Assembly (NCBI GenBank): GCA_002067365.1
Contig: MVRK01000135.1
Span: 1 to 64,000, forward strand
Length of the DNA: 64,000 nucleotides
Direction: 5' to 3'
From: Methanosaeta sp. PtaU1.Bin060
GTDB lineage: Archaea; Halobacteriota; Methanosarcinia; Methanotrichales; Methanotrichaceae
Part shown: positions 6,565 to 64,000 of the stretch, piece by piece
Layout: each line of letters starts with the position of its first letter
Position numbering within the stretch: the first letter of the stretch is position 1
Program-made: the position numbers and the translations under genes
The notes under the pieces: generated by a model
Database searches by the model: none
What the model saw: only the letters and a program-made list of their open reading frames with translations
Told to the model about the DNA's origin: nothing

Positions 6565-6570
6565 TCTTCA

Positions 6571-6793: not shown

Positions 6794-7162
6794 CTACTTC
6801 AGGGCCGAGACTTTCTGGATGACATCGTCCAAGAGCTCTTTTCCCTTGCCAGGCTCGACGATGGCTGCGGCAGCGCTCTTGACGCCTAGACCTGCAGCGG
6901 CACCTATCTCGCTCTGCTTTTTGACATAGACGTAGGGCGTCTTCTTCTCCTCGCATAGAGCAGGAATGTGAGCCACTATCTCAGGGGGCTGAACGTCCTC
7001 CCCTACGATCACCAGGCGCGCTACGCCACGCTCGATGGCCTTCGTCGCCTCGTTTGTGCCCTTCTTTATTCTGCCTGTGTCACGAGCCAGCTCGAGGGCC
7101 TCCAGGGATTTCGAGGCCACCTCGGCGGGAACATCAAACCTCACGTATATTGGTCTTGCCAT
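6794..7162 (-). CDS. rpl7ae: 50S ribosomal protein L7Ae (K-turn binding)
   Basis: This 122-aa archaeal L7Ae binds kink-turns in 23S rRNA, box C/D and H/ACA RNAs and RNase P. Visible signatures are [20 protein letters not shown], the RNA-contact loop [20 protein letters not shown], and [15 protein letters not shown]. It is the first gene of the cluster. The roughly 140 bases upstream, between it and the next gene's end at 7301, should hold the promoter. Confidence 0.97.
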
Positions 7163-7273
7163 AACTTGATTCTCCTTCGGGGCAGCGTCTGCCCGTCATC
7201 ATTCATCGCAAAAGCGCTTCAGATTAGATCAGCGAGATGCTACAGATGTAAAAAGGTTGCGCTATGAAGCCAT

Positions 7274-7285
7274 GAAAAAAGAAAA
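7274..7285 (-). terminator. poly-T terminator after the 7301-8146 gene
   Basis: On the minus strand the sequence just past the stop of the upstream secreted protein reads TATTTTCTTTTTTCATG. An oligo-T tract at this position is the usual archaeal termination signal. Confidence 0.35.
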
Positions 7286-7300
7286 TAGAGAACCCCTGGC

Positions 7301-8170: not shown

Positions 8171-9625
8171 TTATTTAACTTTTCTGGAGGGCCAAAGCAG
8201 CTCATCCTGGGTATAGCTCCTCCCCAATTCCAGGGCTATCTCGGCCTTCTCCAGCTCGCGGCCCAGGTATCCTGCGTGGTCGAGCCTCGTGACCAGGCCC
8301 ATCTCTATCAGTGTGTTCAGGATCTCCCTCGCGCTCTTTCCTGCCACAGAAGCGCTCCTGTGGCGAGCTATGATGTGGTCGCCGGAGATTCTGATCCTGA
8401 AGCTGCCAGCCGGGTCCGCCTCGTATCTGTTTTCGGTCCTAGCCTCTATGAACAGCTTCGGCATCGCCTCTTCTGGCCTTCGCCTCTTCTCCTTCAGGAC
8501 GAGGAGGTCGATGCCCAGGTCTTTTGGCGGCGTCATCCTTTGTCTGGCAAGAAGCATCATCTCCGAGGCTACACGAAGCTCTCGCACGCTCCCCTTGGCC
8601 TTGGCGCTGTACTCTGGGGTGAAGAGGATGCTGGCCCCGACCTCGGCTCCCAGGGCCGCCAGAAGGGCATTTGCGCCCTGGCTGTCCGCATCCAGAAGCT
8701 CAGTCACATTGCCTATGCCGAAGAAGAGGGGGATATCCGGATAGCGCTCTTTGAAGCTCAGGTATCTCCCGAGGGAGGTGGCCAGACCCTGCTGTGGAGG
8801 CGCTAGCACTGGATCGGCTATTACTATTACTCCCATCTGCGTCGCTTTATTGATGTTCTCCTCCAGGCCGATTGAGCCAGGGCCAGGTATGATCACCGCA
8901 GGCACACCAGCCAGGGCCACAGCCTTGCCTGCGAGGGGCAGGTTCTCGGCGTTCAGGCTCAGGACCAGATCAGCTCCTGCCTCAAGGCCTGCGCTGATGA
9001 GATCGGGGCGGACTGCGTCGATGCTCACAGGCAAGGCTGTGGCCTCCTTCGCAGCCCTCACAGCTTCGGAGACCTGGGCCGGATTGGCATCGAGGGAGAG
9101 CCCCAGGTCGATCATGTCGGCGCCCTGCTCCTCATAGTAGTGAATCCTCATGGCGAGCATAGCGGCGGACATTCGCGTGGAATCCACGATCTCCGCCAGG
9201 ACCTTCATCCTGGATTCTTTTCCGATCTTTGTCCCTTTCACCTGCATCGCAGGCGCAGCATCCGCCTCCAGGCGCTCTATCTGGGCCAGGGCATCTCTAC
9301 GCATTCGATCATCCAGAAGAACGCAGGCTGGAGTTGTGCGCGATAGCTCGACCTCCCCCATATGGCGTAGCACCAAGCCGAGGTCGGCCGCATGCTTTGG
9401 CCCGAGCCGGATCTTCGTCTTCAAGGCCTTTTCCGCCTCGCCGAAATCCGCGGTGACGGCTCCTGGAATGAGGATCAGGTCGTAGCCTTTGGGCGCGGCT
9501 TCAAGAAGCATCTGGGGCGTGATGAAGGATGCGACGTCCACATCCAGGACCAGCACATCAACCTCCTTCGCAAAGGACCTCACAAGATCCTCGGCGAGCC
9601 TTCCCGTGACTGCGAGAACCTTCAT
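8171..9625 (-). CDS. dihydropteroate synthase-related protein
   Basis: A protein of about 484 aa with a TIM-barrel centre resembling the pterin-binding/DHPS fold. Visible parts are VLAEIVDSTRMSAAML, YYEEQGADMIDLGLSL, then LPVSIDAVRPDLISAGLEAG, LVLSLNAENL and PLFFGIGNVTELLDADSQG. It matches the archaeal DHPS-related family thought to act in tetrahydromethanopterin-type cofactor biosynthesis; the precise reaction is inferred. The N-terminal 150 residues are a separate alpha/beta domain (MKVLAVTGRLAEDLVRSFAK). This start was chosen because the family begins with MKVLxVTG; an 18-residue upstream extension is possible but unlikely. It lies 24 bases upstream of the 281-aa secreted protein on the same strand. 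Confidence 0.85.
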   Translation of the reverse strand: MKVLAVTGRLAEDLVRSFAKEVDVLVLDVDVASFITPQMLLEAAPKGYDLILIPGAVTADFGEAEKALKTKIRLGPKHAADLGLVLRHMGEVELSRTTPACVLLDDRMRRDALAQIERLEADAAPAMQVKGTKIGKESRMKVLAEIVDSTRMSAAMLAMRIHYYEEQGADMIDLGLSLDANPAQVSEAVRAAKEATALPVSIDAVRPDLISAGLEAGADLVLSLNAENLPLAGKAVALAGVPAVIIPGPGSIGLEENINKATQMGVIVIADPVLAPPQQGLATSLGRYLSFKERYPDIPLFFGIGNVTELLDADSQGANALLAALGAEVGASILFTPEYSAKAKGSVRELRVASEMMLLARQRMTPPKDLGIDLLVLKEKRRRPEEAMPKLFIEARTENRYEADPAGSFRIRISGDHIIARHRSASVAGKSAREILNTLIEMGLVTRLDHAGYLGRELEKAEIALELGRSYTQDELLWPSRKVK

Positions 9626-10176: not shown

Positions 10177-10397
10177 TTCGACACTCCAATGCTTCAAATG
10201 CCTTGATATTATTAATAGACACTTTCGCTGTACACTTCCGTACAAAACGCGTTCAGTAGGGCCAAAGAGGAATACAAAATAAATCAATGTGTATCCTCAT
10301 AAAACGGGCTTGATCGTTGCGATTGATAACGACTGTGCTCGGGACTCGCCGCATACCAACAAAAAATATAAAATCCATGGGGCCCGGATAGAGGTTA

Positions 10398-10430
10398 CGC
10401 GAAGTGATAACTGTTGAGATCCACTTCGCG
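10398..10430. repeat. perfect 9-bp inverted repeat (stem-loop)
   Basis: CGCGAAGTG at 10398-10406 is the exact reverse complement of CACTTCGCG at 10422-10430, with a 15-base loop. It stands isolated in the intergenic region upstream of the divergent DUF1699 gene and pycB. It could be a protein-binding site or a structured RNA element. Confidence 0.5.
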
Positions 10431-10903: not shown

Positions 10904-11098
10904 ATATCCGCGGTTCAGCTTGAGAATTAAGATCCGACCGGCCCAAATCCGGTCGATGCTTCGATCTCAACTGAAGTATTGCAAAGACTATACGGAGCCC
11001 AGATAGAGGGCTTCAGGCTGAGGAAGAATGTGCCATATGCGCTGGCTAACGGGTCAAAGGGGTTTTAAAGTAGAGGGACCAAATAGGAGAGGATCTTC

Positions 11099-16683: not shown

Positions 16684-17586
16684 ATGTTCTCGGGCTTGGA
16701 AGAGTACGATCTGATCAACCATGAGCTTGCCAAGCTGGTGAAGGGTCTGCCCGAATCCGATCTTGGCGAAGTCATCTCCTACGTCCTCTCCTCGCCAGGA
16801 AAAAGGGTGAGGCCGATCATTCTGATCTTATCCGCGAGAGCATTCGGAGCGCCATCCTCTCAGGCCCTGAATGCTGCCCTGGCGATAGAGCTGGTCCACG
16901 CCGCCTCCCTTGTCCACGATGATATCCTCGACTGCGGAGTGGAGCGGCGTGGCTCTCCCTCTGCCATCGAGCGATTTGGAACGGAGGCTGCTCTGCTCGC
17001 AGGAGATTACCTCATCTCCAAATCGATAGAATTGATCTCCGTCTACTCAAGATCGGTGATCGGCAACTTTTCCAGGGCATGCATGAGCATGTCCGAGGGC
17101 GAGATGCTGGACCTCTCCAGAGGCTGCACTTTTAACGATTACTATCGGTGCATCTCCCAGAAGACCGCCTCGCTCTTCGCGGCCTCGGCTTCCATAGGCT
17201 GCCTTATTGCGCGTGCCCCTCAGGAGGACGTGACAAGGCTGGAGCAGTATGGCCTGAACCTGGGGCTTGCGTATCAGATCCTCGATGATCTTGAGGAGTT
17301 TTTGGGCATAGATCAGGGGAAGGTATCGAGGAAGACGTCCGTGATTCTCCAGAGATTCTCAGAAAATATGTGCGCAAAGGACAATTTGCAGGCAGATGAG
17401 AAGCATGCAGCACAGGCCGCTCTTCAGATGTGTGTGAAAGCCATCGAGGATCACTGCCTCATGGCGAAGAGCGCGCTGTCTGAATCTTCTGGCGAGACGG
17501 TCATGAAGTCCCGTCTGGAAGGCATCGTCGATGAGATGACGCATCGGGGGCTGGAGAGATGCAGATCGCAAAAAAGCCTCTGCTGA
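16684..17586 (+). CDS. polyprenyl (geranylgeranyl-type) diphosphate synthase
   Basis: This 300-aa trans-prenyltransferase elongates isoprenoid chains for archaeal lipids or quinone-type side chains. It shows SSPGKRVRPIILILSARAFG, the first Asp-rich motif DDILD (79-83) followed by the family's RRG in CGVERRGSP, GDYLISKSIELIS, and the QKTASLFAASASIG helix. The second Asp-rich motif is QILDDLEEF, with Glu in place of the third Asp; this is common and tolerated. Chain length cannot be fixed from sequence alone. The last 28 bases overlap the next gene (radical SAM), so the two are translationally linked. Confidence 0.9.
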   Translation: MFSGLEEYDLINHELAKLVKGLPESDLGEVISYVLSSPGKRVRPIILILSARAFGAPSSQALNAALAIELVHAASLVHDDILDCGVERRGSPSAIERFGTEAALLAGDYLISKSIELISVYSRSVIGNFSRACMSMSEGEMLDLSRGCTFNDYYRCISQKTASLFAASASIGCLIARAPQEDVTRLEQYGLNLGLAYQILDDLEEFLGIDQGKVSRKTSVILQRFSENMCAKDNLQADEKHAAQAALQMCVKAIEDHCLMAKSALSESSGETVMKSRLEGIVDEMTHRGLERCRSQKSLC

Positions 17587-51636: not shown

Positions 51637-51892
51637 GGCTTTCACCAATCTTGTTATCCAACTATTTCAAGTCCTCTAGAGGCAATCTTCCTTCCTCAAG
51701 TCCCCCTCATCAAGAGGATAGTGACTGCACAATGCTCTCTCTCAACCGCAAAAAAAGGGCCGAATCTCACCCCTAAGAAGAGATGCGAGCCAGAGGCTTC
51801 TGAGGCCAAGACGGTTCTCTCGCCGGGGTGAAGCCATGAGAGTGGTGCGATTTTATCAGAACCGCTTACTGCACTTTTTATATATAATACAG

Positions 51893-52010
51893 CGCCGAGG
51901 GTGGGATTCGAACCCACGATCCGCGTAGCGGAACAGGTTTAGCAAACCTGCGCGCCCTTCGCGAATCCTTGGTTCAAAGCTTTAACCAATCGCCCGCTTT
52001 CGTTTTCGGC
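51893..52010 (-). tRNA. tRNA-Ser(GCT), 3' half intact, 5' half abnormal (candidate attachment site)
   Basis: On the minus strand the anticodon arm is CAGGT-TTGCTAA-ACCTG (anticodon GCT at 51943-51941). The long variable arm TCCGC/GCGGA, T-arm GTGGG-TTCGAAT-CCCAC and acceptor 3' strand CCTCGGC with discriminator G are all well formed. The 5' half is not: the acceptor 5' strand GCCGAAA pairs only over five positions with CCTCGGC, position 8-9 is AC rather than TA, and about 30 extra bases sit between a D-arm-like hairpin (AAAGC/GCTTT) and the anticodon stem. It may be a 3' fragment left by integration, a pseudogene, or an unusual intron-bearing gene. Confidence 0.5.
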
Positions 52011-52140
52011 CTTTTTCCTATCCGCTTTATAGCTCTATGAAGGCACCCGATCTATAAATAATTTGCCGCGGTAAAGGTAGTAATTAGGTAGCCTCATTTG
52101 AGCGAGAACATTGGAGCGTCTAGTATGAGACTCAATCTCA

Positions 52141-53529
52141 TCATCGCAGAATCTTCTTAGCTAGTGCCACCAGGAATGTTGACATAAGCAACCATCCAAG
52201 AATCCGCTCCATGATGCTGATATACCAGCATAATCCGCTTAAGTTGCCAATTTGTGTGGTTGTAGTGAGTATTATGGCGCTTAGGCCGAATACGCCTGGG
52301 AATTGGGCCTGACCACCCCACAAATAGACAAAGGTTGCGATAAAAAAGATCGCAATCATCGATAATAGTGGATAGTAGAAACGAACACCATATCCATAAA
52401 ACCCCAAAGCTATATAATCGAGATACAATGGTAATCCGGCTAGATGTTCCTTTCTTCGTACCGTTCGATATTGGAACTTACAATTATCTGCATCGTCAAA
52501 CTTCCCTTGATTTTCATAATTCCTAATTAGTGCCAAATAAGCTGACTCATCGAATACCAGCTTATCCTTAATTAATGCCCATGGTACTTCGAGAAACGCC
52601 AAATCGGAATTTCTCAATGATAAACTAGAATCAATTCCTAATGAAACATTGAACAACATGTGTTTGATTAAAGAATTATTTATATTAACATTATTGTCAA
52701 AACTGGATTTTTCAAAGCTTGCCGCTCCGATGAATTGAGAGTTGAAGAAGTTCGCTTTTCCATTAAATTGGGCGTTGGAAAAATTAGTGAACCCAAGAAA
52801 CTCCGCTCCATCAAAAAAAATCTCCGTTCCGCTGAATTCTGCTCCATCAAATTCAACAAATAAGCTGAACCTCGCTCTATTGAAACTGATCACCTCTCCG
52901 TTAAATCTAGCCTCTTTAAAGCTTAAACCACTGCCAAACTGAACACCCATGAACTCTATCTTTTCCCCGATAATCTCGGCTTTAGAAAAGTCGGCAAATT
53001 TGCCAAATTCCGCTCCATTGAAACTTGTCTCCTTTCCTTTGAGCTTCACTTCGCTGAATTCGGTTCCTTTATCAAATTGTGTCTGAAAGAAATTGGCATT
53101 TTTTATAAAATGGGCTTCTGTGAAATAGGCAAATTCCTTAAATTCAGCGTGCGAGAAAACAACATCTTCTTTAAACTGCGCTCCGGCAAAGTGAGCTTCT
53201 CTGGAGAACTGTGATTCTGTGAAGCTAACATTTTTCTTAAATTGAGTGCCAAGAAATTCCGACATTCCCTCAAATTTAGATCCATAAAAGTCTACAATTT
53301 CTTCAAAAATGATATAGTTGAAGTTCAAAGATCCATTGATTGTCGAATTTCTAATATTTATCATAGAATGCACGGATTTTTTATCAGCTTCATCCACAGG
53401 CTCCTCTGCGCGGCCAAAATCAATATTGCCTTTTATGATGACATGATCATATTCCACCAGCTCGCCTTTCTCGATCTTTGCAAGTATCTCGCTGGCAGGA
53501 ACCTCTCTGAGATTGTCCACTTCTGCCAT
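52141..53529 (-). CDS. pentapeptide-repeat protein fused to a K+-channel-like membrane domain
   Basis: This 462-aa protein has about 45 tandem pentapeptide-like repeats (A-x-F pattern: FSHAEFKEFAYF, FNGAEFGKFADF, FNRARFSLFVEF), forming a right-handed square coil. A linker (LIRNYENQGKFDDADNCKF) and a C-terminal membrane region with two or three helices follow, including VRFYYPLLSMIAIFFIATFV, AIILTTTTQIGNLSGLCWYI and GWLLMSTFLVALAKKIL. The last part is shaped like an Ion_trans_2 pore, but the selectivity filter has become TTTTQIGNLSG instead of TTVGYGD. It may be an element-encoded membrane or effector protein. It is the first gene right of the tRNA-Ser. Confidence 0.8.
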   Translation of the reverse strand: MAEVDNLREVPASEILAKIEKGELVEYDHVIIKGNIDFGRAEEPVDEADKKSVHSMINIRNSTINGSLNFNYIIFEEIVDFYGSKFEGMSEFLGTQFKKNVSFTESQFSREAHFAGAQFKEDVVFSHAEFKEFAYFTEAHFIKNANFFQTQFDKGTEFSEVKLKGKETSFNGAEFGKFADFSKAEIIGEKIEFMGVQFGSGLSFKEARFNGEVISFNRARFSLFVEFDGAEFSGTEIFFDGAEFLGFTNFSNAQFNGKANFFNSQFIGAASFEKSSFDNNVNINNSLIKHMLFNVSLGIDSSLSLRNSDLAFLEVPWALIKDKLVFDESAYLALIRNYENQGKFDDADNCKFQYRTVRRKEHLAGLPLYLDYIALGFYGYGVRFYYPLLSMIAIFFIATFVYLWGGQAQFPGVFGLSAIILTTTTQIGNLSGLCWYISIMERILGWLLMSTFLVALAKKILR

Positions 53530-54150
53530 TTCGGTCCACCATCTTCTTGATCTACTTATGGATATTTGGTTCTTTGGTTAGATCAATGGAAAGACTAAAG
53601 GCTTGGACTGCATTTTGAATTTTTTAAAGTTAGTTGTTATACAGGAGGGTCATAGTGGAAACCGGGTTAGCCTTTTCAACCAAACCACATATTATATTAT
53701 AACGTGATTTCGTTGGTTTACCTAAGCCAAATTCTGCGCGCGTGTTACCTGCATCTATCCGACGACACCAGGCGATCCAAGCACGATAAATTTCTTAATA
53801 TCTAAAAAAATTTTATCAGAGGCCAATTTTATAAAATACAATATTTTGATGTGGAGAGCTAGTTAGGATCGTGCCTTTGGCTAACCCATCTATTACGAAG
53901 ACTATAGAAATTGGAATGATCCCGTGCGCATCCTCATCCCTATCCGCTCGAAAAAGATCTTTATAAAATTCTGCCTATTTTTACAGGCTTACCGCTAGTG
54001 ATTTTCTGTAAATCACTGATACTTGATTTCTAGTTTTATATTAACCGTTAATTCCGCATTTAAAGAAAATTATATTATAAGAGCTTTTAGAAATGCTGCA
54101 AGGATATATCGGCCTAAGCCATTACGATGCCAAGTCCAAAAGTGTTATAC
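53530..54150. other. AT-rich intergenic region in the island
   Basis: About 620 bases with no convincing gene. A good ribosome site (AGGAGGGTCATA, ~53644) leads only to a 14-codon frame. It contains AT tracts and may be degenerate sequence from island rearrangement. Confidence 0.4.
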
Positions 54151-54633
54151 TCAAGGTTTCCTCTCAACTTCTTCATTGAGCCATTCAAGGTGCTTCACGG
54201 CCTGTTCTACTGCTTTTCGTGCATATTCTATCAGCTCGTCTAAGTTGACCGAGTCTTGTATTATGCCACTTGGACCTGTAGGAGATATGTCTGTAAACCC
54301 TCTATGTGCAGCAGTTTCTAGATACGCTTTCGGCAAAATGATATCGACTTTACGGGTGTTTCCTGGCCCCAAATTATCGCTAATTTCGATTTTTACCCTC
54401 GATGATTCTTCAGGCGATTCTTCCCGTATACCGCGTCTTAAATTTACTGCATATCCCCACTTTATGAGATCATCAATTTCATCTTTTAATACAAGCAACA
54501 TAGTGATATTTGTATTTAGCGTCTCATAATTTTTCTGTTGCTCATCGGGGTTTAGGACACGTATTGGGGCATCTATTAGGCCCCTTCTTTGTACGTCGTC
54601 CAAAAGTTGAAGGCGCTCCCATTTTTTCGTCAT
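54151..54633 (-). CDS. unknown 160-aa protein divergent from the E2-E1-JAB operon
   Basis: A soluble protein starting MTKKWERLQLLDDVQRRGLI. It has a helical N-terminus, a central beta region (SSRVKIEISDNLGPGNTRKV, DIILPKAYLETAAHRGF) and a helical C-terminus (LDELIEYARKAVEQAVKHLE). No motif is recognised. The C-terminus is ERKP, not a Ubl-type GG. Its promoter (TATATAAAG at 54657-54666) directs a nearly leaderless transcript away from the MBL-E2-E1-JAB operon, so it is the divergent neighbour of that system and could be a regulator, target or immunity protein. Confidence 0.7.
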   Translation of the reverse strand: MTKKWERLQLLDDVQRRGLIDAPIRVLNPDEQQKNYETLNTNITMLLVLKDEIDDLIKWGYAVNLRRGIREESPEESSRVKIEISDNLGPGNTRKVDIILPKAYLETAAHRGFTDISPTGPSGIIQDSVNLDELIEYARKAVEQAVKHLEWLNEEVERKP

Positions 54634-54656
54634 ATTAAACTATGTGGAAGTGCCCT

Positions 54657-54666
54657 CTTTATATAC
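54657..54666 (-). promoter_or_regulatory. TATA box of the 160-aa gene
   Basis: The minus strand reads GGTATATAAAGAGGG, ending about 23 bases before the ATG at 54633. Confidence 0.5.
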
Positions 54667-54834
54667 CTTTCATACCTTATGGCACACAGGAATTTCTAGG
54701 TTTATGCTGCGCCAATTGCCCAGTATATGGCTAAGCTATCAAGACATTCTGAAGGAGCGCGATTTTTTGCACACAGATTGGATAGTGGTTTCTGGGCAAC
54801 AAGGGATAGATCACTTTCGGCCTGCACAGGTCCT

Positions 54835-54845
54835 CTTTAAATACT
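54835..54845 (+). promoter_or_regulatory. TATA box of the MBL-E2-E1-JAB operon
   Basis: CTTTAAATACT lies about 43 bases before the first ATG of the MBL gene, followed by GGGGTGAAAT as a Shine-Dalgarno. One promoter can serve all three genes. Confidence 0.5.
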
Positions 54846-54887
54846 ATCGATTTTCTATAAGAGACCAATGGCCAATAGGGGTGAAAT

Positions 54888-56048
54888 ATGATGGCGGGTG
54901 CTGCAATAATATATTTTCCTGTCGGGAATGGCGATACAAGTCTTATAAGACTATCTGACGATACGAATATATTAATTGATTGCAATATCACTAATAAGTC
55001 AACAGAAGACGATGAAGAAAAATGGTATGATTTAAAAGACCATTTGCTAAAAATTCTTAGGAAAGATGAAAGGGGAATATTTCATATCGATTTATTCATC
55101 CTAACCCATCCTGATCAAGATCATTGCCGGGGTTTCGAAGATCATTTCTATATAGGTGATCCAAATAATTTGAATGATTCCGCTAAAAATAATAAAAAAA
55201 TCTTTATTGATGAGTTATGGTTTACCCCAAGATTATTCCTTCCTACGAATGAAGATTCTCTATGTGCATCAGCTCAAGTATTTTTGAAGGAAGCGCGACG
55301 CAGGATAATGGTTTACAAAGAGAATAAAGTGCTATCAAAATTGCCTGGAAATAGATTGCAGATTATTGGGTATTCGGATAACAAAAGGTTAGAAGGTTTG
55401 AAGGATATTGTTATAGTTCCCGGTACTCTAACAAATCTCATTAATGCAGATCATAAGAAGGATTTCTCTCTTTTTATTCACGCGCCTTTCCGTAAGGATC
55501 TAGATTCCGAAGACAGTGAAAAAAATGAGACTAGTGTTGTCTTCCAAGCGCGTTTTGTCGTCGATGGAGAAGATCGTGCAGGTTTAGCCCTTTTCGGTGG
55601 TGATGCTCAGTATGAGATCTGGCGAGATATTCTTGACCGCAGTGAGGAGGGAGATCTTCAATGGGATCTCTTTTTGGCACCTCATCATTGCTCTTGGACT
55701 TTTTTCAGTGAGATAGATTACAAGGACGATCCTAATCCAAGAAAAGAATCCTTAGAATTGTTAACTAATAAGCGAAAGGGTGCGATAGTAATCGCTTCAT
55801 GCAAGCCAGTAAAAGACGATGATGATAACCCTCCTCATTATCAGGCAGCCCAGAAATATAAAGAGATCGTTGGAGAGAAGGATTTCTACGTCACCATGGA
55901 GTATCCGAGCTCTGAACAACCACTTCCGTTAGAGTTTGAAATCACAAAGAAAGGTCCACAAAGAAAAGATCCACCAAGGTCTGGTACTATTGCATCTTCA
56001 GCCGCAATAAATAAGGTCGTCAGAGTACCGCAGACTTATGGCTTCTGA
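54888..56048 (+). CDS. ComEC-like metallo-beta-lactamase-fold protein (possible nuclease)
   Basis: This 386-aa soluble protein has the MBL fold. The metal motif is ILTHPDQDHCRGFEDHF (H74-x-D76-x-D78-H79). This is the H-x-D-x-D-H form seen in the ComEC/Rec2 C-terminal nuclease domain rather than the classical H-x-H-x-D-H. Further ligands are an Asp in ALFGGDAQYEIW and a His in LAPHHCSWTFF (ComEC-like HHGS). A Lys/Arg-rich C-terminus follows. In ComEC this domain is linked to DNA cleavage, so a DNase or RNase-like effector role is plausible but inferred. It overlaps the E2-E1-JAB gene by 11 bases, so the pair is translationally coupled. Confidence 0.8.
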   Translation: MMAGAAIIYFPVGNGDTSLIRLSDDTNILIDCNITNKSTEDDEEKWYDLKDHLLKILRKDERGIFHIDLFILTHPDQDHCRGFEDHFYIGDPNNLNDSAKNNKKIFIDELWFTPRLFLPTNEDSLCASAQVFLKEARRRIMVYKENKVLSKLPGNRLQIIGYSDNKRLEGLKDIVIVPGTLTNLINADHKKDFSLFIHAPFRKDLDSEDSEKNETSVVFQARFVVDGEDRAGLALFGGDAQYEIWRDILDRSEEGDLQWDLFLAPHHCSWTFFSEIDYKDDPNPRKESLELLTNKRKGAIVIASCKPVKDDDDNPPHYQAAQKYKEIVGEKDFYVTMEYPSSEQPLPLEFEITKKGPQRKDPPRSGTIASSAAINKVVRVPQTYGF

Positions 56049-58386
56049 TTTATATACTACAGGTTTGCAGGAGCAGGCACTTGATGCCTTAAGCCCAGCA
56101 ATACGAGCAGCGATACTTCAATTGAAGCAGAAGTTCCCAAGGCAAGAGATCAAAGCATTAAATTGGGATGATAATTATATTGCTATACCTATTGATGTTG
56201 ATGTAATTTTGCCTTCTCGGGGAACTATTGATGATATCGATATTCGCGAATCGGAGCCAATATGCCTCATCATAAATAAAAGAAATTATCCATATCAACC
56301 TCCTTATGTCTGGTCAAATCGCAAAGACTTTCCCAAAAATCGATTACCTCACCTCAATTACGGCCGAGCTGATAGTCCGGCAAGTTTCTGCCTACATCGA
56401 GGACGATTAGATGATTGGTATTCCGAACATACTATAAATGAACTAGCTGATAGAGCAAGGGGCTGGTTACGAGACGCGGCAGGAGGCCGCCTTATTCCTC
56501 CAGGAGATCGATTTGAACCTATACGAATAGACGAGAGTTTTGGATATTGTCTCTACGAGCCATCATATTTTATAAATCATATTCAAAATAAATGGTTTAT
56601 GGAAAATAATCGCGAAGGTTTTGCATTTTTATGGTATAAATTATTGAATAGTTCTGTTCCAGATCCAGATCCTATAGTTGGCCGGAGCGGTTATGCAATT
56701 AAGATTGAATATTTACTCAATGAGGAAATAATTCCGGGCGCTATTGATTTAAGTATAAGAATAAATGCATTACAATCTACAGATAATGAGCTAGGTAGAA
56801 GGCTATTCGGGATATTAGTATGGCCTCCAGGCGATTATTTAAATGCAGAATATTGCACAGACCACCCCCATACTCTAGAAGATCTAATTGAATGGTCTAA
56901 GCATCTTAGATTACCCCTGGAACAGGCGCTTCAGGCGTATTTGGCGAAAAATCTACATCTTCTTGTAGGTGTTCCCATAACTTTAGTAATTCCCAGACCG
57001 CAAATCCTTGTAGATAGGCAAACAAATCTTGAGCTTCTTAATTTTGTTATCATTGCCGGAGATGGTTCAGCGCCAAAAGATGGATCCTGGAACCTTAATG
57101 CAAGGGTCTCTATAATGAGCCATAGATTTCCTTTAACCCACAAAAGAGCCAGGGAAATTTCTTCAAAACCGATAGGCTTCAGTCTAGGGGATATAATCTT
57201 TCTCGGTTGCGGTTCTTTGGGTTCGAAATTGATTCTTCATTTGGCCAGAAGCGGTCAAATTTCTATGACTCTGGTTGATAATGACACATTATCACCACAT
57301 AATTTGATTAGAAATGGTCTTTTATGCCAAGCCCTTGGAAAGAATAAGGCTAAAGCTATTAAAGACGAAATTGATGGGATCTATTATGCCGACGATGAAA
57401 AGAGAATTGAAGCAATTGAAGAATCTGCGCTGAATTTTCTTCTGAGTGATCGAAAGGATATGTTGGCTAGGCATTCATGGTTGGTAGATACTACCGCGTC
57501 TAACGTAATACTGGATATGCTATGTCAAGTCGAACTTCCAGAGTCGATCCGTTGTTGTCGGTGTGAAATAGCGCATCAAGGACAATTGGGACTGCAAAGT
57601 ATAGAAGGATACCATCATAATCCACGTGTCGATGACCTAAGGATGCAGATATTTGATTGGGGAATTGAGGATGATATAATATCCGATTGGCTTCGTCAAA
57701 ACCAAGAAAAGCGCGAAAGTATAATTGGCTCAGGATTAGAGGAAATCACAATCGGAGTAAGTTGTAGCTCGGAGTCAATGAGGTTGTCTGATGAGATCTC
57801 CTCTTTGCATTCAGCGTCGTTCGCTATCTGTTTTCGAAAAGCTGCTGAAGAATCAAGATCTGATGGAACTATCCAACTAGGATATATTAATGTTACTGAA
57901 GATATTATCAATGTCGTTAGAAAACGTAACATAGGCAAAACACATGTCATACAAGCCCATAACAACCCTTTGTGGCAAGTGAGATTGAGTAATAATTCGA
58001 TGGAAAGCTTAAGGATGCTATATTCAAAATCTGGCGGTTGTGAGATAGGTGGATTACTTATAGGAATCATCAATCAGAAGTATAAAATTATATATGTAAC
58101 AAGAATAAAGACTATATCAGATAGCATGTGTCGTCCCTATCTCTTTGTAAGAGGTACGCATAATCTTCCTGAAGATCTGAAAATGATAGAGGATAGAACG
58201 GGAGGCTTAATCGGTTATGTTGGTGAGTGGCATACACATCCAATGGGAGGATCTGAATTGAGTGATCAAGATATGCATACTGTAAATCAAATTAGAAGAT
58301 ATCTCGATCACAGTAATTTGCCTACCCATGTGATGATTGTTACTTTAGATGGGCTTTATTCGCATATATTTCATCGAGAAGGGTGA
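56038..58386 (+). CDS. triple fusion: E2 (UBC-like) - E1 (ThiF-like) - JAB/JAMM peptidase
   Basis: A 782-aa single chain. Residues ~1-160 are E2-like: the fold core is ICLIINKRNYPYQPPYVW, and the putative catalytic Cys118 sits in SPASFCLHRGRLDDWYSEHT. A linker or adaptor spans ~160-380. The E1/ThiF domain spans ~380-620: ATP-binding loop IIFLGCGSLGSKLIL (G390-x-G-x-x-G395), and VDNDTLSPHNLIRNGL. The JAB/JAMM metalloprotease spans ~645-782: CEIGGLLIG (Glu669) and GEWHTHPMGGSELSDQD, matching H732-x-H734-x7-S742-x2-D745 exactly. E1 activates a ubiquitin-like C-terminus, E2 conjugates it, and JAB removes it. All three steps are here in one protein. No Ubl gene is adjacent. Confidence 0.88.
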   Translation: MASDLYTTGLQEQALDALSPAIRAAILQLKQKFPRQEIKALNWDDNYIAIPIDVDVILPSRGTIDDIDIRESEPICLIINKRNYPYQPPYVWSNRKDFPKNRLPHLNYGRADSPASFCLHRGRLDDWYSEHTINELADRARGWLRDAAGGRLIPPGDRFEPIRIDESFGYCLYEPSYFINHIQNKWFMENNREGFAFLWYKLLNSSVPDPDPIVGRSGYAIKIEYLLNEEIIPGAIDLSIRINALQSTDNELGRRLFGILVWPPGDYLNAEYCTDHPHTLEDLIEWSKHLRLPLEQALQAYLAKNLHLLVGVPITLVIPRPQILVDRQTNLELLNFVIIAGDGSAPKDGSWNLNARVSIMSHRFPLTHKRAREISSKPIGFSLGDIIFLGCGSLGSKLILHLARSGQISMTLVDNDTLSPHNLIRNGLLCQALGKNKAKAIKDEIDGIYYADDEKRIEAIEESALNFLLSDRKDMLARHSWLVDTTASNVILDMLCQVELPESIRCCRCEIAHQGQLGLQSIEGYHHNPRVDDLRMQIFDWGIEDDIISDWLRQNQEKRESIIGSGLEEITIGVSCSSESMRLSDEISSLHSASFAICFRKAAEESRSDGTIQLGYINVTEDIINVVRKRNIGKTHVIQAHNNPLWQVRLSNNSMESLRMLYSKSGGCEIGGLLIGIINQKYKIIYVTRIKTISDSMCRPYLFVRGTHNLPEDLKMIEDRTGGLIGYVGEWHTHPMGGSELSDQDMHTVNQIRRYLDHSNLPTHVMIVTLDGLYSHIFHREG

Positions 58387-58393
58387 AAGATTA

Positions 58394-59119
58394 ATGGAAA
58401 TTTTGGATCAATACGAAATAAGAGCGAGAATTTCGCCATCTGTAGTTGTTAGTCTACCATTAGCCGTCACACTGTTTATTGGTGCATATGAGGTTTCCAA
58501 TTCTCTAACCGATACTGTACTGGGAGCAGGTGTAATTTATACTATATTAATATATGGCATTAGTATTTTTATCAGAGGATTCGGGCACAAAATAGAGCAA
58601 GCCTTATGGAAAAGCTGGGGAGGTCCGTCTTCTGTGCGTGTTATGCGTTGGAGCGATTCATTATTTGGGGATGAGCAAAAGCTACAGTTTCACGATGCCG
58701 TTAGAGATAAATGCAGCATTGTCTTAAGTACTAGAGATGAAGAAAAGAGAAGTCCAAAGGATGCTGATTGGAAAATCTCGCAAGCTTTCTTACAGGTGAG
58801 AGCTATCCTTCGTCGCTGTGATAAAGAAGGTCTGTGGTCAAAACATAATGCTGAATATGGCTTCCAGCGAAATCTCTTGGGTAGCCGAGTTATATGGCTC
58901 CTTTTCTCAATTCTAGGTTCTATAGGATGTTGGACAAGTTGGACATATGAAAAGGCCAATATTTGGATACTAGGCTTGGCAATAAATTTACTATGGGCTA
59001 TTGCATCAATTATATGCGGTTGGTATTTGTTACCTAAATTCATCAGATTTTCAGCTGATCGTTATGCGGAGAGTGCATGGAGTTCATTCCTAATATGCGC
59101 GCAGAAAGATCCCGCCTGA
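58394..59119 (+). CDS. four-helix membrane protein of the ubiquitin-like operon
   Basis: This 241-aa protein has four predicted transmembrane helices: VVVSLPLAVTLFIGAYEV, TVLGAGVIYTILIYGISIFI, VIWLLFSILGSIGCWTSW and ILGLAINLLWAIASIICGWY. The cytoplasmic loop between helices 2 and 3 is ~130 residues. The ATG lies 7 bases after the E2-E1-JAB stop, with GGGTGA before it, so it is co-transcribed. In CBASS and related defence systems, small membrane proteins are common effectors; it could be a pore-forming effector or a membrane anchor for the system. No named family is recognised. Confidence 0.75.
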   Translation: MEILDQYEIRARISPSVVVSLPLAVTLFIGAYEVSNSLTDTVLGAGVIYTILIYGISIFIRGFGHKIEQALWKSWGGPSSVRVMRWSDSLFGDEQKLQFHDAVRDKCSIVLSTRDEEKRSPKDADWKISQAFLQVRAILRRCDKEGLWSKHNAEYGFQRNLLGSRVIWLLFSILGSIGCWTSWTYEKANIWILGLAINLLWAIASIICGWYLLPKFIRFSADRYAESAWSSFLICAQKDPA

Positions 59120-59221
59120 AATCCTCCGCGCCTCTCTCGTTTCCATCGCAGGCCAACTGTAGAGAGGGAAATAAAAAAGGAGGTTAAATTCTTGAAAGTG
59201 TTCCTTCTTCATATGCCTGTG

Positions 59222-59371
59222 TCAATCGAGTTTGCATCCATTCAAACATTGCCAAGATCCTCGATAATACTTCCCACCGCCTGCAAGCATGGCAAAATGT
59301 CTTCGCCCACAAACCTTGCATTCCATCAGGCCAGTGCTTGGGTCGATAAGCCTCATCACTTTCTTGGTCAT
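59222..59371 (-). CDS. small zinc-ribbon protein (49 aa)
   Basis: A short frame coding for MTKKVMRLIDPSTGLMECKV, then CGRRHFAMLAGGGKYYRGSW and QCLNGCKLD. The C-x2-C and C-x3-C pairs form a probable zinc ribbon. Short one-ribbon proteins of this type occur in archaeal mobile elements. A GGATGTGAATT lies upstream of the ATG. The opposite-strand ORF with a strong ribosome site (59192) overlaps it and is considered less likely. Confidence 0.6.
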   Translation of the reverse strand: MTKKVMRLIDPSTGLMECKVCGRRHFAMLAGGGKYYRGSWQCLNGCKLD

Positions 59372-59676
59372 GGCATAATTCACATCCTGTTATTTGATAC
59401 TGGCAAGAACCGACAGCTCTAGCTGTCAGATCCTACCCCCATACCTTGCCAAGCCAAACCCTACCGCGATAGATCTGTGTTGACTCCCTGCCGGGAGAAA
59501 ATCGAACTTGATCCACAGATCCCAACCGTGTACTGGCGGTTTCCAATATATATTTTTTCGGATCCCATAAGGTCGACAGTACTTTTTTTAGCTAGTAGCA
59601 GAAAATATTAGAAAAGTATTATGGAATAATAAGAGAATAAGGTGAGAAGTTAATATAGTTTGAAGATTTCGGAAAA
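59372..59676. other. intergenic region with one possible mini-gene
   Basis: The only notable content is the 35-codon minus-strand frame at 59461-59568, listed separately. The flanks are AT-rich (59540-59560 and 59580-59650) and probably carry promoters for leftward genes. Confidence 0.4.
59461..59568 (-). CDS. possible 35-aa element-encoded peptide
   Basis: An ATG frame reads GSEKIYIGNRQYTVGICGSS, then SIFSRQGVNTDLSR and stops. It could be a complete mini-protein or a truncated N-terminus. Its composition looks protein-like, but no family is known. Confidence 0.3.
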   Translation of the reverse strand: MGSEKIYIGNRQYTVGICGSSSIFSRQGVNTDLSR

Positions 59677-60441
59677 TTACTTCATATGTAATATATCGCC
59701 AAGTTTGATGCTGTTGATCCTGTACCTATTTAGAATCTCACTGAAAAGTTGTCGTTGTTTTTCTATGCTATCGAATCCTCTTTCTCTTGACAGGGAATAT
59801 AATTCTTCTCCAATTCTTGTAACTTTAGGACGACGAGTTCTATATCGTTCTTTCAATCTATCCCATTCACGCAAGGTATCCTTATCTCTTATCGATTCCA
59901 TTTGCAGCGAGAGTTGTGAGTAATATAATGCCTTTTTAAATATATGCCATTCATACGGTGGATCGCCATAAGAATCTAAACTCTCAAAAGTCCCTGGCAT
60001 CAAAACGCTGCTATAGAAATGAGCTGGACTGAATCCATATTTATCCTGTAACCACGAATCTATTAAAGGGTCGTCTACCATGCTTCCCAATATATTACCC
60101 ATATCTTTTATTTCCTCTTCTTTATACATTTTCGCAATTGGTGTTGGTGCTCTCATGAATTCCATATATTGCTTATCAAAATATTTTATGACATGTCCCA
60201 TTTCATGTGCTACCAGAAAAGCGTCATCAATAGTATCTGGTAATTGTCGAATAACAATAAAAGGCTTTTTATTTTCGTCGATTGATTGCATCGCGTACAT
60301 GGGACATGTTGGATCGATTATCCAATCTATTGAAATCTTTCGTGGAACCCACTCGGTTTGATAGAAGCAATCAAATTCATCAAAATGAAGTATTCTACTA
60401 ATTATATCGTCCTCATCTACTCGCTGACCATCCCTGCACAT
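59677..60441 (-). CDS. ImmA/IrrE-like HEXXH zinc peptidase
   Basis: This 254-aa protein contains the zinc-protease motif FLVAHEMGHVIKYFDK (HEMGH), typical of ImmA/IrrE-type metalloproteases that cleave regulators of mobile elements or stress pathways. Other parts (IIDPTCPMYAMQSIDENKKP, FIVIRQLPDTIDDAF) lie around the catalytic domain. The C-terminal half is helical and charged (REWDRLKERYRTRRPKVTRI). Its start overlaps the end of the small zinc-ribbon ORF upstream by 25 bases, so the two are probably co-expressed or were once one protein. Confidence 0.65.
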   Translation of the reverse strand: MCRDGQRVDEDDIISRILHFDEFDCFYQTEWVPRKISIDWIIDPTCPMYAMQSIDENKKPFIVIRQLPDTIDDAFLVAHEMGHVIKYFDKQYMEFMRAPTPIAKMYKEEEIKDMGNILGSMVDDPLIDSWLQDKYGFSPAHFYSSVLMPGTFESLDSYGDPPYEWHIFKKALYYSQLSLQMESIRDKDTLREWDRLKERYRTRRPKVTRIGEELYSLSRERGFDSIEKQRQLFSEILNRYRINSIKLGDILHMK

Positions 60442-60647
60442 GAAGAATGATTACATTTAGAGCATTTAAACGTTTTGCAGTATATCCTGAAAGCTATATC
60501 AATGGGGCTGCCTCCATCGACGGAAGGCGGCCTGACATATTTGCATATAGCACCACAGTCTATGCATTTAACAGGCACAAATAATCCAGACGGAAAAATA
60601 ACATTAGTTATCATCAACAACACTCGGTTCGTAAAATTCATGATCAA
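60417..60647 (-). CDS. zinc-ribbon ORF overlapping the peptidase
   Basis: A 76-aa frame with a CxxC pair (VKCIDCGAICKYVRPPSVD) and more cysteines near the end (IYCKTFKCSKCNHSSCAGMV), so a zinc ribbon is probable. The first ~25 residues are hydrophobic and may not be genuine. It overlaps the HEXXH peptidase start by 25 bases and may be its N-terminal partner. Confidence 0.45.
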   Translation of the reverse strand: MIMNFTNRVLLMITNVIFPSGLFVPVKCIDCGAICKYVRPPSVDGGSPIDIAFRIYCKTFKCSKCNHSSCAGMVSE

Positions 60648-60761
60648 GACAAAAATAATTCACTGAGCTTTCACGCTGGCATTCTGTATTAGCGTTATCC
60701 ACTTGTTATCGCCTCGTACCTCGATTCCACATGCCTCAGTTGGCGTTCTTCCTTCCAACCC

Positions 60762-61013
60762 TCATGCTTCCAGGCGCTTGCGCTCCAGATCCGCTTTCTC
60801 GATAGCGTCAACCGCCGCGTGATACGAATCCTCGCCCATCATGCCCGCGATCTTCTCGCGCGAAAATCCCGCATCCAGCAAGCTCTTGAATTCCTGGATC
60901 AACCCAAGTTCGGTGTCCGTAAGGCAATCTAGCGCGAGCATGTCCAGAGTGCCCTCGTCATATCGTGCCTCGCGGTTCTCCAACTTCGCAATGCGCGCCT
61001 CCAAGCCCTTCAT
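60762..61013 (-). CDS. small coiled-coil phage-like protein
   Basis: An 83-aa protein starting LEARIAKLENREARYDEGTL, with CLTDTELGLIQEFKSLLDAG and EKIAGMMGEDSYHAAVDAIE. The N-terminus is coiled coil. It overlaps the preceding 74-aa gene by four bases (ATGA). Short proteins of this design lie near packaging or replication genes of phages and plasmids; the function is unknown. Confidence 0.6.
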   Translation of the reverse strand: MKGLEARIAKLENREARYDEGTLDMLALDCLTDTELGLIQEFKSLLDAGFSREKIAGMMGEDSYHAAVDAIEKADLERKRLEA

Positions 61014-61234
61014 CGTGCCTCCAGCGCCGCCAACCTTTTCTCGATCTCAGCCAGCTTATCAAGCTCCATCGCTTTTATCCAGACCGCGAGCAGCTGAGCC
61101 ACTCGCCCGCTGTATTCCAGCTCCTTACCTTCTTGGAACGCTTTGCTTATAATTCGCTGAACAACGCGGCGCACATCATCCGGTGTCCTTAACGTTACAC
61201 CCCGCCGCTTCTTAACCCTATTATAATCTACCAT
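61010..61234 (-). CDS. small phage-like protein (74 aa)
   Basis: It reads GVTLRTPDDVRRVVQRIISK, then AFQEGKELEYSGRVAQLLAV and ELDKLAEIEKRLAALEA. The LRTPxDVR...LAALE pattern resembles small proteins often found near terminase or replication genes in phages and mobile elements. Function unknown. It overlaps the 83-aa gene by four bases. Confidence 0.65.
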   Translation of the reverse strand: MVDYNRVKKRRGVTLRTPDDVRRVVQRIISKAFQEGKELEYSGRVAQLLAVWIKAMELDKLAEIEKRLAALEAR

Positions 61235-61335
61235 AATTTAATCTCCCGCTATTGAAAATAATCGTTAATCCCCCGGAGTCTCGAATCTGGGTATTCCTCG
61301 CGCGTACATCCAGAACGTGTCGCCACGTAGTTGCG

Positions 61336-61398
61336 ATAGCGGCAATTTTCTCTACTTTTATTTTCTTTTTTGTAATTAAAAGTAAAAATAGCCGCTAT
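61336..61398. repeat. nested long palindrome (candidate replication origin)
   Basis: ATAGCGGC (61336-61343) pairs with GCCGCTAT (61391-61398). Inside, TACTTTTA (61353-61360) pairs with TAAAAGTA (61377-61384). The 63-base structure sits in a ~230-base gap between two minus-strand gene groups of the element. It may be an origin or partition site, or a terminator. Confidence 0.7.
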
Positions 61399-61463
61399 AA
61401 CCGCTAACGATACGCTGCGACCCTATTTCTTCCCCCCAATTACCTAATTCATCTCCAACCTTA

Positions 61464-61577
61464 TTACGGGATACTATGTCCCAAGGCTTCCCCGATTTTC
61501 GTTTTATCATCATCCGTCAAAGTGATTACGCCCTGTTGGGCCGCCAGCAGCAACACTGCCACCTCAAGTAGACTCAT
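61464..61577 (-). CDS. tiny 37-aa protein
   Basis: The ATG at 61577 follows the neighbouring 47-aa gene by four bases. The product begins SLLEVAVLLLAAQQGVITLT and ends DDDKTKIGEALGHSIP. It looks translationally coupled to the upstream gene. Function unknown. Confidence 0.5.
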   Translation of the reverse strand: MSLLEVAVLLLAAQQGVITLTDDDKTKIGEALGHSIP

Positions 61578-61581
61578 TTTT

Positions 61582-61725
61582 TCACGAATCATTGCGCATC
61601 GCCTTGAGCACTTGGGGCCATCTCTCACCCAGCATTTCCGCGATCTCCTCTTCACGATATCCGCACTTATTTAGAGCATCGACCTCATCAAGAAGATCGT
61701 CGATCTCGCGTTCACTAACTTTCAT
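61582..61725 (-). CDS. 47-aa phage-like protein
   Basis: It reads KVSEREIDDLLDEVDALNKC, then GYREEEIAEMLGERWPQVL. The C-terminal half has the look of a helix-turn-helix-like or small adaptor segment, similar to short proteins in archaeal mobile elements. It is followed at four bases by the 37-aa gene. Confidence 0.55.
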   Translation of the reverse strand: MKVSEREIDDLLDEVDALNKCGYREEEIAEMLGERWPQVLKAMRNDS

Positions 61726-61842
61726 TGTTCATTCTCCAAATTTTATAATATTACAGAAGTATTACGTGCACAACGGATTTTTCTCCTGTCTATCTTGGTG
61801 ATCGGTTCCGCACGTAGTTGGCGCTTCGGCTGCGTATCGCCT

Positions 61843-62238
61843 TCATTCTAGAAGAACCGCGGGTACTTGCCAATCGTATACGAAACTAGCGACCGCACCT
61901 TTCCTGACCAAATCAATCGCATCTTTATCAGAAAATGGGCTACTCTTTTTATAACTCAGTGCTACCATCGTTTGATATACCAGATCCTCGAAGCAGCCAG
62001 CCTTCAGCACCATCCCGTTTAGCACTTCGTGGAGTTCCCTCAGACAGTAATCTTCGGGCGGGAACTCAAAAGATCTGTATTGTGCACCGCTATCCGCTTC
62101 AGTAACCATACAGAAAGTCAGGGGCGGTATCGGGCAATTAATCTCGCCCGGCAAAGCCATCCTCATGAAAGTGCGAACTTCCGGGAATAGCTCAAAATAA
62201 CTGCTGTCCAGCCAAGCCGCAGTCTTAACCGAGTTCAA
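61843..62238 (-). CDS. 131-aa protein coupled to the helicase-primase
   Basis: It starts MNSVKTAAWLDSSYFELFPE and contains INCPIPPLTFCMVTEADSGA, then DYCLRELHEVLNGMVLKAGC. The ATG overlaps the stop of the helicase-primase gene by four bases, so it is translationally coupled and probably works with it. No known family. Confidence 0.65.
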   Translation of the reverse strand: MNSVKTAAWLDSSYFELFPEVRTFMRMALPGEINCPIPPLTFCMVTEADSGAQYRSFEFPPEDYCLRELHEVLNGMVLKAGCFEDLVYQTMVALSYKKSSPFSDKDAIDLVRKGAVASFVYDWQVPAVLLE

Positions 62239-64000
62239 ATTTCCACCTTTATTTCTTTTTTAGCACCACAACGATGGCAGTCAATGAAATTACCACACCT
62301 TTCCTGCAATGTCGAACACCTGAACGGATTATAGCCGCCTTCCTTCAACCCGCGAACCTGACGCAGCGTGTACGCCTCGCTAAAATCTTTTTGATTCCGG
62401 AACATATCGACTATAGATTCCTCGGAGTAGCCTTCCGCGATCGCTTCGGCAGCTATCGCTACGCGCGTGGTGTGGCCTTCCGCCCCGACAAGATCTTTGC
62501 ATTGCGCGTCCACAAGGCACTGCCGCATACCTTTTTTAATCTTAGGCTTCGGTCTGTAGCTGCTGCTCAAATACTTTCGACCCCCGACCTCTTCGATCTC
62601 CGCCTTAACATCCCGTAGTTCAGCAATGCGCGTAATGGCAACAGCATCCACGGGCTCCAGCGTATTGCTGTCCAGAAGCTGCGAGCGCACCCCTGTCTTC
62701 CTATTAACCGCGCACGGCATCTTAAGAGCGTTACCGTATCGTGTTTTACCTGACTGCTTCGGAAAGATCTCGCATTTAACGCCCGCTTTTCGCGCGATGC
62801 TCTTAGCAAAATCGCGTGATACTGCCGCAGTAGTTCTCAAGATCGGTACCTTGACGTGGAACGAGTGTGGCGAGCCACTCGCGACCACTATTGCCTGACA
62901 TCCAGCTTCTTCGATCACCTTAACCAGCGCGACAACTTTCGGTTCAGCGGGTTCATCGCCTTCATTATGGCAATCGACATCAAAGGTGCACTCGCTCGTA
63001 TTGCCGTCTTCATCGAGCGAATACATCGCGGGCGTCACTGATCCGTCAAACATTCCGGCGACCAGCGCCTTAAAATCCGCCGTATTCACCTTGCGGTATG
63101 GATATCGACCCGCCGCATCCTTAAAGTGAGCCTGCTCGACATGATAGTCCGAGCGATTCACGTAAAGCTGACTGAGAGCGCGAGTGGTCAATTCCAACTG
63201 CGTCGCTGTTAGCGGATTTTGATATAAAATCGCATAGCAGCGACGTCCCGAGTAAAAAGTATACCCGTTTTCCCGCGTTTTCCCGTATATATTATATATA
63301 CGGGATTTCGCGGCGTTTTGGGTATCTATTTCTATCGCAGCTCCGCTAGATAGCGATTCCTCGCAAAAATCGAGAGACGAAGACCAGACGCGCGATAAAT
63401 TAGGGTGGCCCTTCTGGCGTATCGGATCCTTTTTGTGCTCGACGAACACCGTTTTGATGGTCGGCGATTCGAAGGGGTGGTCGCATAGAACGCGCGGGCT
63501 ATCATCGACCTCGACGCGCCTCCCTATGCCCCATGTCGCTATATCCCTACCTCGGTCGGGAGTAACACCAATGCAATACACACGGCTTTCTACTTGACCA
63601 TCTGGGTCTTTCGCCCTGCTCCAAGCCTGCCACGTCGAGGCATCTACTTCATTTTTTCGGAGTGCCTGGCTCTCTTCGAACCCGTTAGTAGAAGCATCCT
63701 CCGCGTTGAACGGTTTATCAGCCGCGCCAACGGCAATCAAAACTCGGCAGTTGCTCTTAATTCCGATAGCTGCGGCACTTCGATACCAGCTCACAGTTAT
63801 ATCCGGTCGTCCTAACCGCTTTTCGATGGCTTTGGCGAGCCTCCTATTAAGAGCGAAAATGACGACGCCCTGCCCCTTTTCTCTCAGCAGCACATCATCA
63901 ATTTTTTCCATAATCTTGTCCATCGTCGCGGTGTATCCTCTCTCAAGCATCTTAGTCCCGAAACGCCAAGTATCGCAATAGATCGACATCTTGCTATTTG
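62235..64000 (-). CDS. helicase-primase fusion (AEP primase domain), 5' end beyond window
   Basis: The visible ~584 aa start in an open frame that runs to the window edge, so the N-terminal helicase part is missing here. The first ~170 residues resemble the second half of a helicase (VVIFALNRRLAKAIEKRLG, EVDASTWQAWSRAKDPDG). An archaeo-eukaryotic primase core follows at about residues 330-450: CTFDVDCHNEGDEP (D-x-D metal site), VASGSPHSFHVKVPI, and KTRYGNALKMPCAVNRKTG. A C-terminal Cys-rich region (MRQCLVDAQCKDLVG ... RCSTLQERCGNFIDCHRCG) suggests a PriL-like Fe-S or zinc module. It is a replication protein of plasmid- or virus-type elements. Confidence 0.75.
   Translation of the reverse strand, partial: NSKMSIYCDTWRFGTKMLERGYTATMDKIMEKIDDVLLREKGQGVVIFALNRRLAKAIEKRLGRPDITVSWYRSAAAIGIKSNCRVLIAVGAADKPFNAEDASTNGFEESQALRKNEVDASTWQAWSRAKDPDGQVESRVYCIGVTPDRGRDIATWGIGRRVEVDDSPRVLCDHPFESPTIKTVFVEHKKDPIRQKGHPNLSRVWSSSLDFCEESLSSGAAIEIDTQNAAKSRIYNIYGKTRENGYTFYSGRRCYAILYQNPLTATQLELTTRALSQLYVNRSDYHVEQAHFKDAAGRYPYRKVNTADFKALVAGMFDGSVTPAMYSLDEDGNTSECTFDVDCHNEGDEPAEPKVVALVKVIEEAGCQAIVVASGSPHSFHVKVPILRTTAAVSRDFAKSIARKAGVKCEIFPKQSGKTRYGNALKMPCAVNRKTGVRSQLLDSNTLEPVDAVAITRIAELRDVKAEIEEVGGRKYLSSSYRPKPKIKKGMRQCLVDAQCKDLVGAEGHTTRVAIAAEAIAEGYSEESIVDMFRNQKDFSEAYTLRQVRGLKEGGYNPFRCSTLQERCGNFIDCHRCGAKKEIKVEI

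What the first reader, a model, noticed from the sequence alone, without database searches (positions are those of the whole stretch)
51893..52010. Broken tRNA-Ser(GCT) marks the border of an integrated element
From the anticodon stem to the discriminator base the tRNA is perfect, but the 5' half fails to pair and lacks position-8 T. Archaeal integrases recombine in the 3' half of tRNA genes and leave a 3' fragment at the far end. Gene content switches here from chromosomal to AT-rich, mobile-element-like, so the island should extend rightward past 64000 to an intact tRNA-Ser(GCT) and an integrase gene.
Basis: partly seen in the sequence, partly recalled or inferred. Interest (0 to 1): 0.6.

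Follow-up and report, generated by a model that had tools for sequence, protein, structure and literature searches.

The report
Mobile element inserted in a tRNA gene

Summary
Confirmed. The window is C135:1-64000 of a 136-contig, 2.78-Mb assembly. The broken copy shares a perfect 64-bp direct repeat (window 51890-51953 = C135:67972-68035) with the genome's one intact tRNA-Ser(GCT), C135:67974-68059, 4 kb past the window edge. A XerA-like tyrosine recombinase lies 160 bp downstream of the intact tRNA. The unit is a 16.1-kb integrative element (51954-67971). It carries a putative primase-helicase, a triple E2-E1-JAB protein with a metallo-beta-lactamase-fold partner (type 6a operon of Iyer et al. 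2006) and other cargo. I found no virion genes among the proteins tested. The host belongs to the Methanotrichaceae.

Relatives add something less ordinary. The same integrase subfamily sits at tRNA-Leu, Pro, Arg, Ser and Gly genes and beside SRP RNA genes. Repeat boundaries place the tRNA crossover in the anticodon stem-loop. Most elements carry the tRNA 3' half, as here. Others carry the 5' half with its promoter: a head-tailed provirus at the same tRNA-Ser in G004, and tRNA-Gly in G026. A 2021 review called 5'-half sites unique to pTN3-like integrases among archaea. No empty site was found.

The parts
51890..51953 (-). Displaced 3' half of tRNA-Ser(GCT): distal attachment site, 64-bp perfect direct repeat of C135:67972-68035
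51954..64000 (.). Integrated element, part inside the window. It continues to C135:67971 (contig numbering continues window numbering). Beyond the window edge lie the tyrosine integrase (C135:67026-67814, minus, 262 aa from GTG, open frame up to 293 aa) and the intact tRNA-Ser(GCT) (C135:67974-68059, minus; repeat copy 67972-68035)
52141..53529 (-). Pentapeptide-repeat protein, 462 aa
   Evidence: Pfam PF13576, E = 1.3e-29
54151..54633 (-). Protein of unknown function, 160 aa
   Evidence: ORF; no family match
54888..56048 (+). Metallo-beta-lactamase-fold protein, 386 aa, partner of the next gene
   Evidence: Pfam Lactamase_B 4e-4; PADLOC LmuA 1e-13 and RTasMBL 1e-11
56038..58386 (+). Triple-module E2-E1(ThiF)-JAB protein, 782 aa
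   Evidence: Pfam Prok-E2_A, ThiF, Prok-JAB; PADLOC E1-E2 and JAB models; operon type 6a of PMC1779556
58349..59119 (+). Protein of unknown function, 256 aa, hydrophobic stretches, overlaps the end of the E2-E1-JAB gene
   Evidence: ORF and sequence; no PADLOC match
59677..60441 (-). Protein with HExxH motif (HEMGH), 254 aa, possible metallopeptidase
   Evidence: sequence; weak PHROG metallo-protease match, E = 0.019
62235..64000 (-). Putative helicase-primase, 969 aa; whole gene is C135:62235-65144, cut by the window edge
   Evidence: PHROG primase 3e-7, PADLOC PrimPol 8e-5, homologues in relatives

Best explanation
A mobile element of about 16.1 kb integrated by site-specific recombination into the single tRNA-Ser(GCT) gene of a Methanotrichaceae archaeon. 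Its XerA-like tyrosine integrase exchanged strands in the anticodon stem-loop, between that gene and an element-borne copy of the tRNA 3' half. The host 5' half with its promoter was thereby rejoined to the element's 3' half, restoring a working tRNA beside the integrase, and the host's own 3' half was left 16 kb away at the far end. That displaced half is the broken tRNA. Shown here: the repeat, the intact tRNA, the integrase, the gene content and the comparative crossover mapping. Inferred: the recombination event itself, that the integrase is active, and that the primase-helicase lets the excised circle replicate.
For: Perfect 64-bp direct repeat bounding the unit. Only one intact tRNA-Ser(GCT) in the genome. 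Tyrosine integrase 160 bp from the intact tRNA. The intact copy has the conserved promoter, the broken one does not. GC and gene content change at the repeat. The same integrase subfamily lies next to tRNA genes in many relatives, with matching direct repeats at the far end of several elements.
Against: No empty site was found in a relative, because this genome's tRNA-Ser has lost its ancestral pheS-pheT-CBS neighbourhood. The right third of the element has host-like GC. Excision was not observed.
Confidence: 0.96

Rival explanations
1. The region is a composite: two elements in tandem (an AT-rich cargo unit on the left, a replication-integration unit on the right) whose middle attachment site has been lost, so the outer repeats do not bound one ancestral element.
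For: GC changes inside the element, 0.39 left of 60 kb and about 0.51 right of 62 kb. Tandem insertion at tRNA-Ser is seen in G027.
Against: Only one integrase gene was found between the repeats and no third copy of the repeat. Mosaic composition is common in mobile elements.
Confidence: 0.12
2. The broken tRNA is a working tRNA with an intron or a trans-spliced 5' part.
For: ARAGORN folds it into a poor cloverleaf. A TATA-like sequence (TATAAAGCGG) lies upstream.
Against: RF00005 does not match it at E <= 1. The canonical promoter is absent. Identity to the intact gene stops at an attachment boundary, and an intact gene with the same anticodon is present.
Confidence: 0.01
3. The repeat is an assembly artefact or a recent segmental duplication of the tRNA gene unrelated to the integrase.
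For: The genome is a draft of 136 contigs.
Against: The flanks of the two copies differ on both sides, the integrase is adjacent, and independent genomes of the family show the same layout with their own repeats.
Confidence: 0.02

Closest known systems
tRNA-integrated genomic islands as mapped by Islander (PMC4383910)
   Same: Integrase, regenerated intact tRNA gene at one end, displaced tRNA fragment as direct repeat at the other
   Different: Nothing essential; host is a Methanotrichaceae archaeon
Classical (non-suicidal) archaeal integrases such as pNOB8 and PYG1 (review PMC8371274)
   Same: Intact integrase gene inside the element, attachment site in a tRNA gene and outside the integrase gene
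   Different: This subfamily is XerA-like by sequence, with one extra residue between the box II His and Arg; within the collection searched, close members are almost confined to Methanotrichaceae
SSV1-type suicidal integrases
   Same: Strand exchange at the anticodon loop of a tRNA gene
   Different: SSV1's integrase gene splits on integration; here it stays whole
pTN3-like integrases
   Same: Some relatives of this element (G004, G026) also use the tRNA 5' half
   Different: This element uses the 3' half. [quoted passage not shown]
Type 6a operon of Iyer et al. 2006 (PMC1779556), as cargo
   Same: E2-E1-JAB triple-module protein next to a metallo-beta-lactamase-fold protein, on a mobile element
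   Different: Here in an archaeon; that paper's table row lists bacteria only; a third overlapping gene follows

Membership tests
tRNA-integrated element (genomic island) | Direct repeat of a tRNA 3' segment at both ends, one end within an intact tRNA gene | tested here: met
   64/64 bp repeat; intact tRNA at one end
tRNA-integrated element (genomic island) | Integrase gene between the repeats | tested here: met
   Tyrosine integrase next to the intact tRNA
tRNA-integrated element (genomic island) | Empty site in a related genome | tested here: inconclusive
   Flanking synteny is lost between this genome and its relatives
tRNA-integrated element (genomic island) | Excision to a circle | not testable with these tools
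   No reads or cultures
SSV1-type (suicidal) integration | Integrase gene split by integration, attP inside it | tested here: not met
   Integrase gene is whole and about 160 bp from the attachment site
pTN3-type 5'-half integration | Element carries the tRNA 5' half | tested here: not met
   This element carries the 3' half; G004 and G026 relatives do carry the 5' half
Tyrosine recombinase | Catalytic R-K-H-R-H-Y | tested here: met
   K139, H208, R212, H235, Y244 invariant and R114 nearly so in 16 members; H208-R212 spacing is one residue longer than in XerA
Provirus | Virion and packaging genes | tested here: not met
   No virion-gene match among the G000 element proteins tested, although not every small ORF was scanned; the G004 element does have them
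Type 6a ubiquitin-like operon (cargo) | E2, E1 and JAB in one polypeptide beside a metallo-beta-lactamase-fold gene | tested here: met

The most novel reading that the evidence does not exclude
One XerA-like integrase subfamily of Methanotrichaceae crosses over in the anticodon stem-loop when it targets a tRNA, but its elements come in two polarities. Most carry the tRNA 3' half, so the host promoter is kept. Some carry the 5' half plus its promoter, so the host tRNA comes to depend on a promoter brought by a mobile element. Polarity has changed more than once. Where both kinds insert at one gene, the working tRNA would lie between two elements with both chromosomal halves orphaned (G009 hints at this).
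Probability: 0.7. Interest if true: 0.5.

Novelty: new member of a known kind. Interest (0 to 1): 0.36.

Why it matters
It shows that a degenerate tRNA called by software can be the boundary stone of a mobile element, and it gives exact ends for a 16-kb element in an important group of acetate-using methanogens, for which the paper searches made here returned no study of tRNA-integrated elements. The comparison with relatives offers a way to study how one integrase family switches between carrying the 3' half of a tRNA gene and carrying its 5' half with the promoter.

Tried and rejected
Intron-containing or trans-spliced tRNA: rejected, because an intact copy exists and identity ends at an attachment boundary. 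Empty-site search with flanking DNA and the left-flank methyltransferase: that gene is present in 11 of 60 other genomes searched but not next to this tRNA. Search for the ancestral tRNA context: it is pheS-pheT-CBS in most genus members; in this genome pheT is on C68 without the CBS gene or the tRNA. Conserved cargo across the family: almost none, only the integrase is shared by all. Viral contigs: four close integrase relatives (L164-L167) were found; only a tRNA scan was run on them and it found none. Paper searches on Methanothrix mobile elements or proviruses returned nothing to the point.

Full report
WHAT IS THERE. The window is contig 135, bases 1-64000, of a 2.78-Mb assembly in 136 contigs, 97% complete. 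On the minus strand at 51892-51973 ARAGORN reports a tRNA-Ser(GCT), but Rfam's tRNA model does not accept it. The genome holds one intact tRNA-Ser(GCT), at C135:67974-68059, minus strand, 53.1 bits, 4 kb to the right of the window. The two share a perfect 64-bp direct repeat: window 51890-51953 and C135:67972-68035, that is tRNA positions 25-86 plus two bases. No other place in the genome matches more than a short T-arm piece of this tRNA. Between the repeats, 160 bp from the 3' end of the intact tRNA, lies a tyrosine recombinase gene (C135:67026-67814; the open frame allows up to 293 aa). The intact copy keeps the genus-wide promoter CGCAGAGTTTAAATA; the broken copy does not.

HOW IT GOT THERE. 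This is the standard signature of tRNA-gene integration: the host 5' half and promoter joined to the element's 3' half (the intact gene), and the host's 3' half displaced to the far end.

WHAT THE ELEMENT CARRIES. In 16.1 kb at GC 0.443: a pentapeptide-repeat protein; an unknown 160-aa protein; an operon-like pair of a metallo-beta-lactamase-fold protein and an E2-E1-JAB triple-module protein with a third overlapping gene, matching the mobile type 6a operon of PMC1779556; a protein with an HExxH motif; a 969-aa putative helicase-primase; small proteins; the integrase. No virion genes were seen among the proteins tested. Replication after excision is an inference from the primase-helicase.

WHO THE HOST IS. 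The genome itself is unnamed. Loci with the same integrase subfamily are mostly titled Methanothrix, Methanosaeta, Methanocrinis, Methanotrichaceae or Methanosarcinales, apart from a few odd bin names, and all close homologues among the relatives searched are in the window's own family. I therefore place the host in Methanotrichaceae; the genus Methanothrix is likely but not shown.

THE INTEGRASE FAMILY. Fifteen relatives are 45-64% identical to this integrase. The best solved relatives are archaeal XerA and a XerC-like protein. Lys139, His208, Arg212, His235 and Tyr244 are invariant and Arg114 nearly so; between His208 and Arg212 there is one residue more than in XerA. Members lie near tRNA-Leu, Pro, Arg, Ser and Gly genes. 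One branch lies beside the archaeal SRP RNA gene (L124, L125), and L125 has a 96-bp direct repeat overlapping the SRP RNA 3' end.

WHERE THE CROSSOVER IS. In elements that carry the 3' half, continuous identity starts between 10 and 3 bases before the anticodon (G000, G013, G035, G047, G038, G021). Other elements carry the 5' half instead. In G004 the order is pheS-pheT-CBS-[promoter and tRNA 1-44]-integrase-virus genes-[promoter and intact tRNA-Ser]; the repeat is 107 bp and 100% identical, includes 63 bp upstream of the tRNA, and ends at position 44. That element is a head-tailed provirus with major head protein, portal and terminase. In G026 the tRNA-Gly(CCC) 5' half (1-38) with about 41 bp of upstream DNA is duplicated between an integrase contig (C344) and an intact gene on another contig (C262). 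G027 has two 5' halves of tRNA-Ser in tandem, and G009 has a 5' half of tRNA-Leu(CAA) beside an integrase. All these limits bracket the anticodon stem-loop. A review states that among archaea only pTN3-like integrases use the 5' half (PMC8371274). In the integrase tree the two tRNA-Ser 5'-type members group together while the tRNA-Leu and tRNA-Gly ones fall elsewhere, so polarity seems to have changed more than once; several inner forks are weakly supported.

LIMITS. No empty site for this element was found. Most genus members keep tRNA-Ser behind pheS-pheT-CBS, but in this genome it sits elsewhere with only its promoter conserved, so the flanks cannot be compared. Activity of the integrase was not tested. 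The G026 case rests on two contigs; the G009 and G027 cases are seen from one end only.

VERDICT. The finding is correct and the thing itself is ordinary; the two polarities within one integrase family are the part worth following.

Noticed in passing
L111 (G004:C1:1684700-1704699): tRNA-Ser 5' half at 1300-1343, intact tRNA-Ser at 16723-16808: A head-tailed provirus of the same integrase subfamily at the same tRNA-Ser, but carrying the 5' half and promoter (107-bp perfect repeat) instead of the 3' half.
   Followed up: yes
L221 (G026:C344:24510-24571) and L224 (G026:C262:14613-14650): A second 5'-half case: tRNA-Gly(CCC) positions 1-38 plus about 41 bp upstream duplicated between an integrase-bearing contig and the intact gene.
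   Followed up: partly
L130 (G009:C59) 520-564 and L131 (G009:C77) 6822-6879: In G009 the 5' half of tRNA-Ser(GCT) keeps the ancestral upstream flank and a 3' half keeps the ancestral downstream flank, with no intact copy found in an 84% complete assembly: possibly two elements of opposite polarity at one gene.
   Followed up: partly
L124 (G000:C115:1-9545) and L125 (G009:C93), 942-1256 and 5001-5096: Members of the same integrase family lie beside the archaeal SRP RNA gene; in L125 the SRP RNA 3' end is part of a 96-bp direct repeat 3.8 kb apart, so SRP RNA may be an integration target.
   Followed up: partly
L105 (G044:C32), 1235-1319 and 10339-10422: An element of about 9 kb flanked by two nearly identical full-length tRNA-Leu(TAA) genes, so here the whole tRNA is duplicated rather than one half.
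   Followed up: no
window 54888-59119: Type 6a-like cargo (metallo-beta-lactamase fold plus E2-E1-JAB, plus a third overlapping gene) in an archaeal element; the 2006 description listed bacteria only.
   Followed up: partly
L219 (G000:C68) 4301-7628: The genus-wide pheS-pheT-CBS-tRNA-Ser order is broken in this genome: pheT is on C68 and the CBS gene and tRNA are not behind it.
   Followed up: partly
L117 (G027:C192) 8178-8216 and 10957-11000: Two promoter-bearing 5' halves of tRNA-Ser in tandem, 2.8 kb apart, behind the ancestral pheS-pheT-CBS flank.
   Followed up: partly
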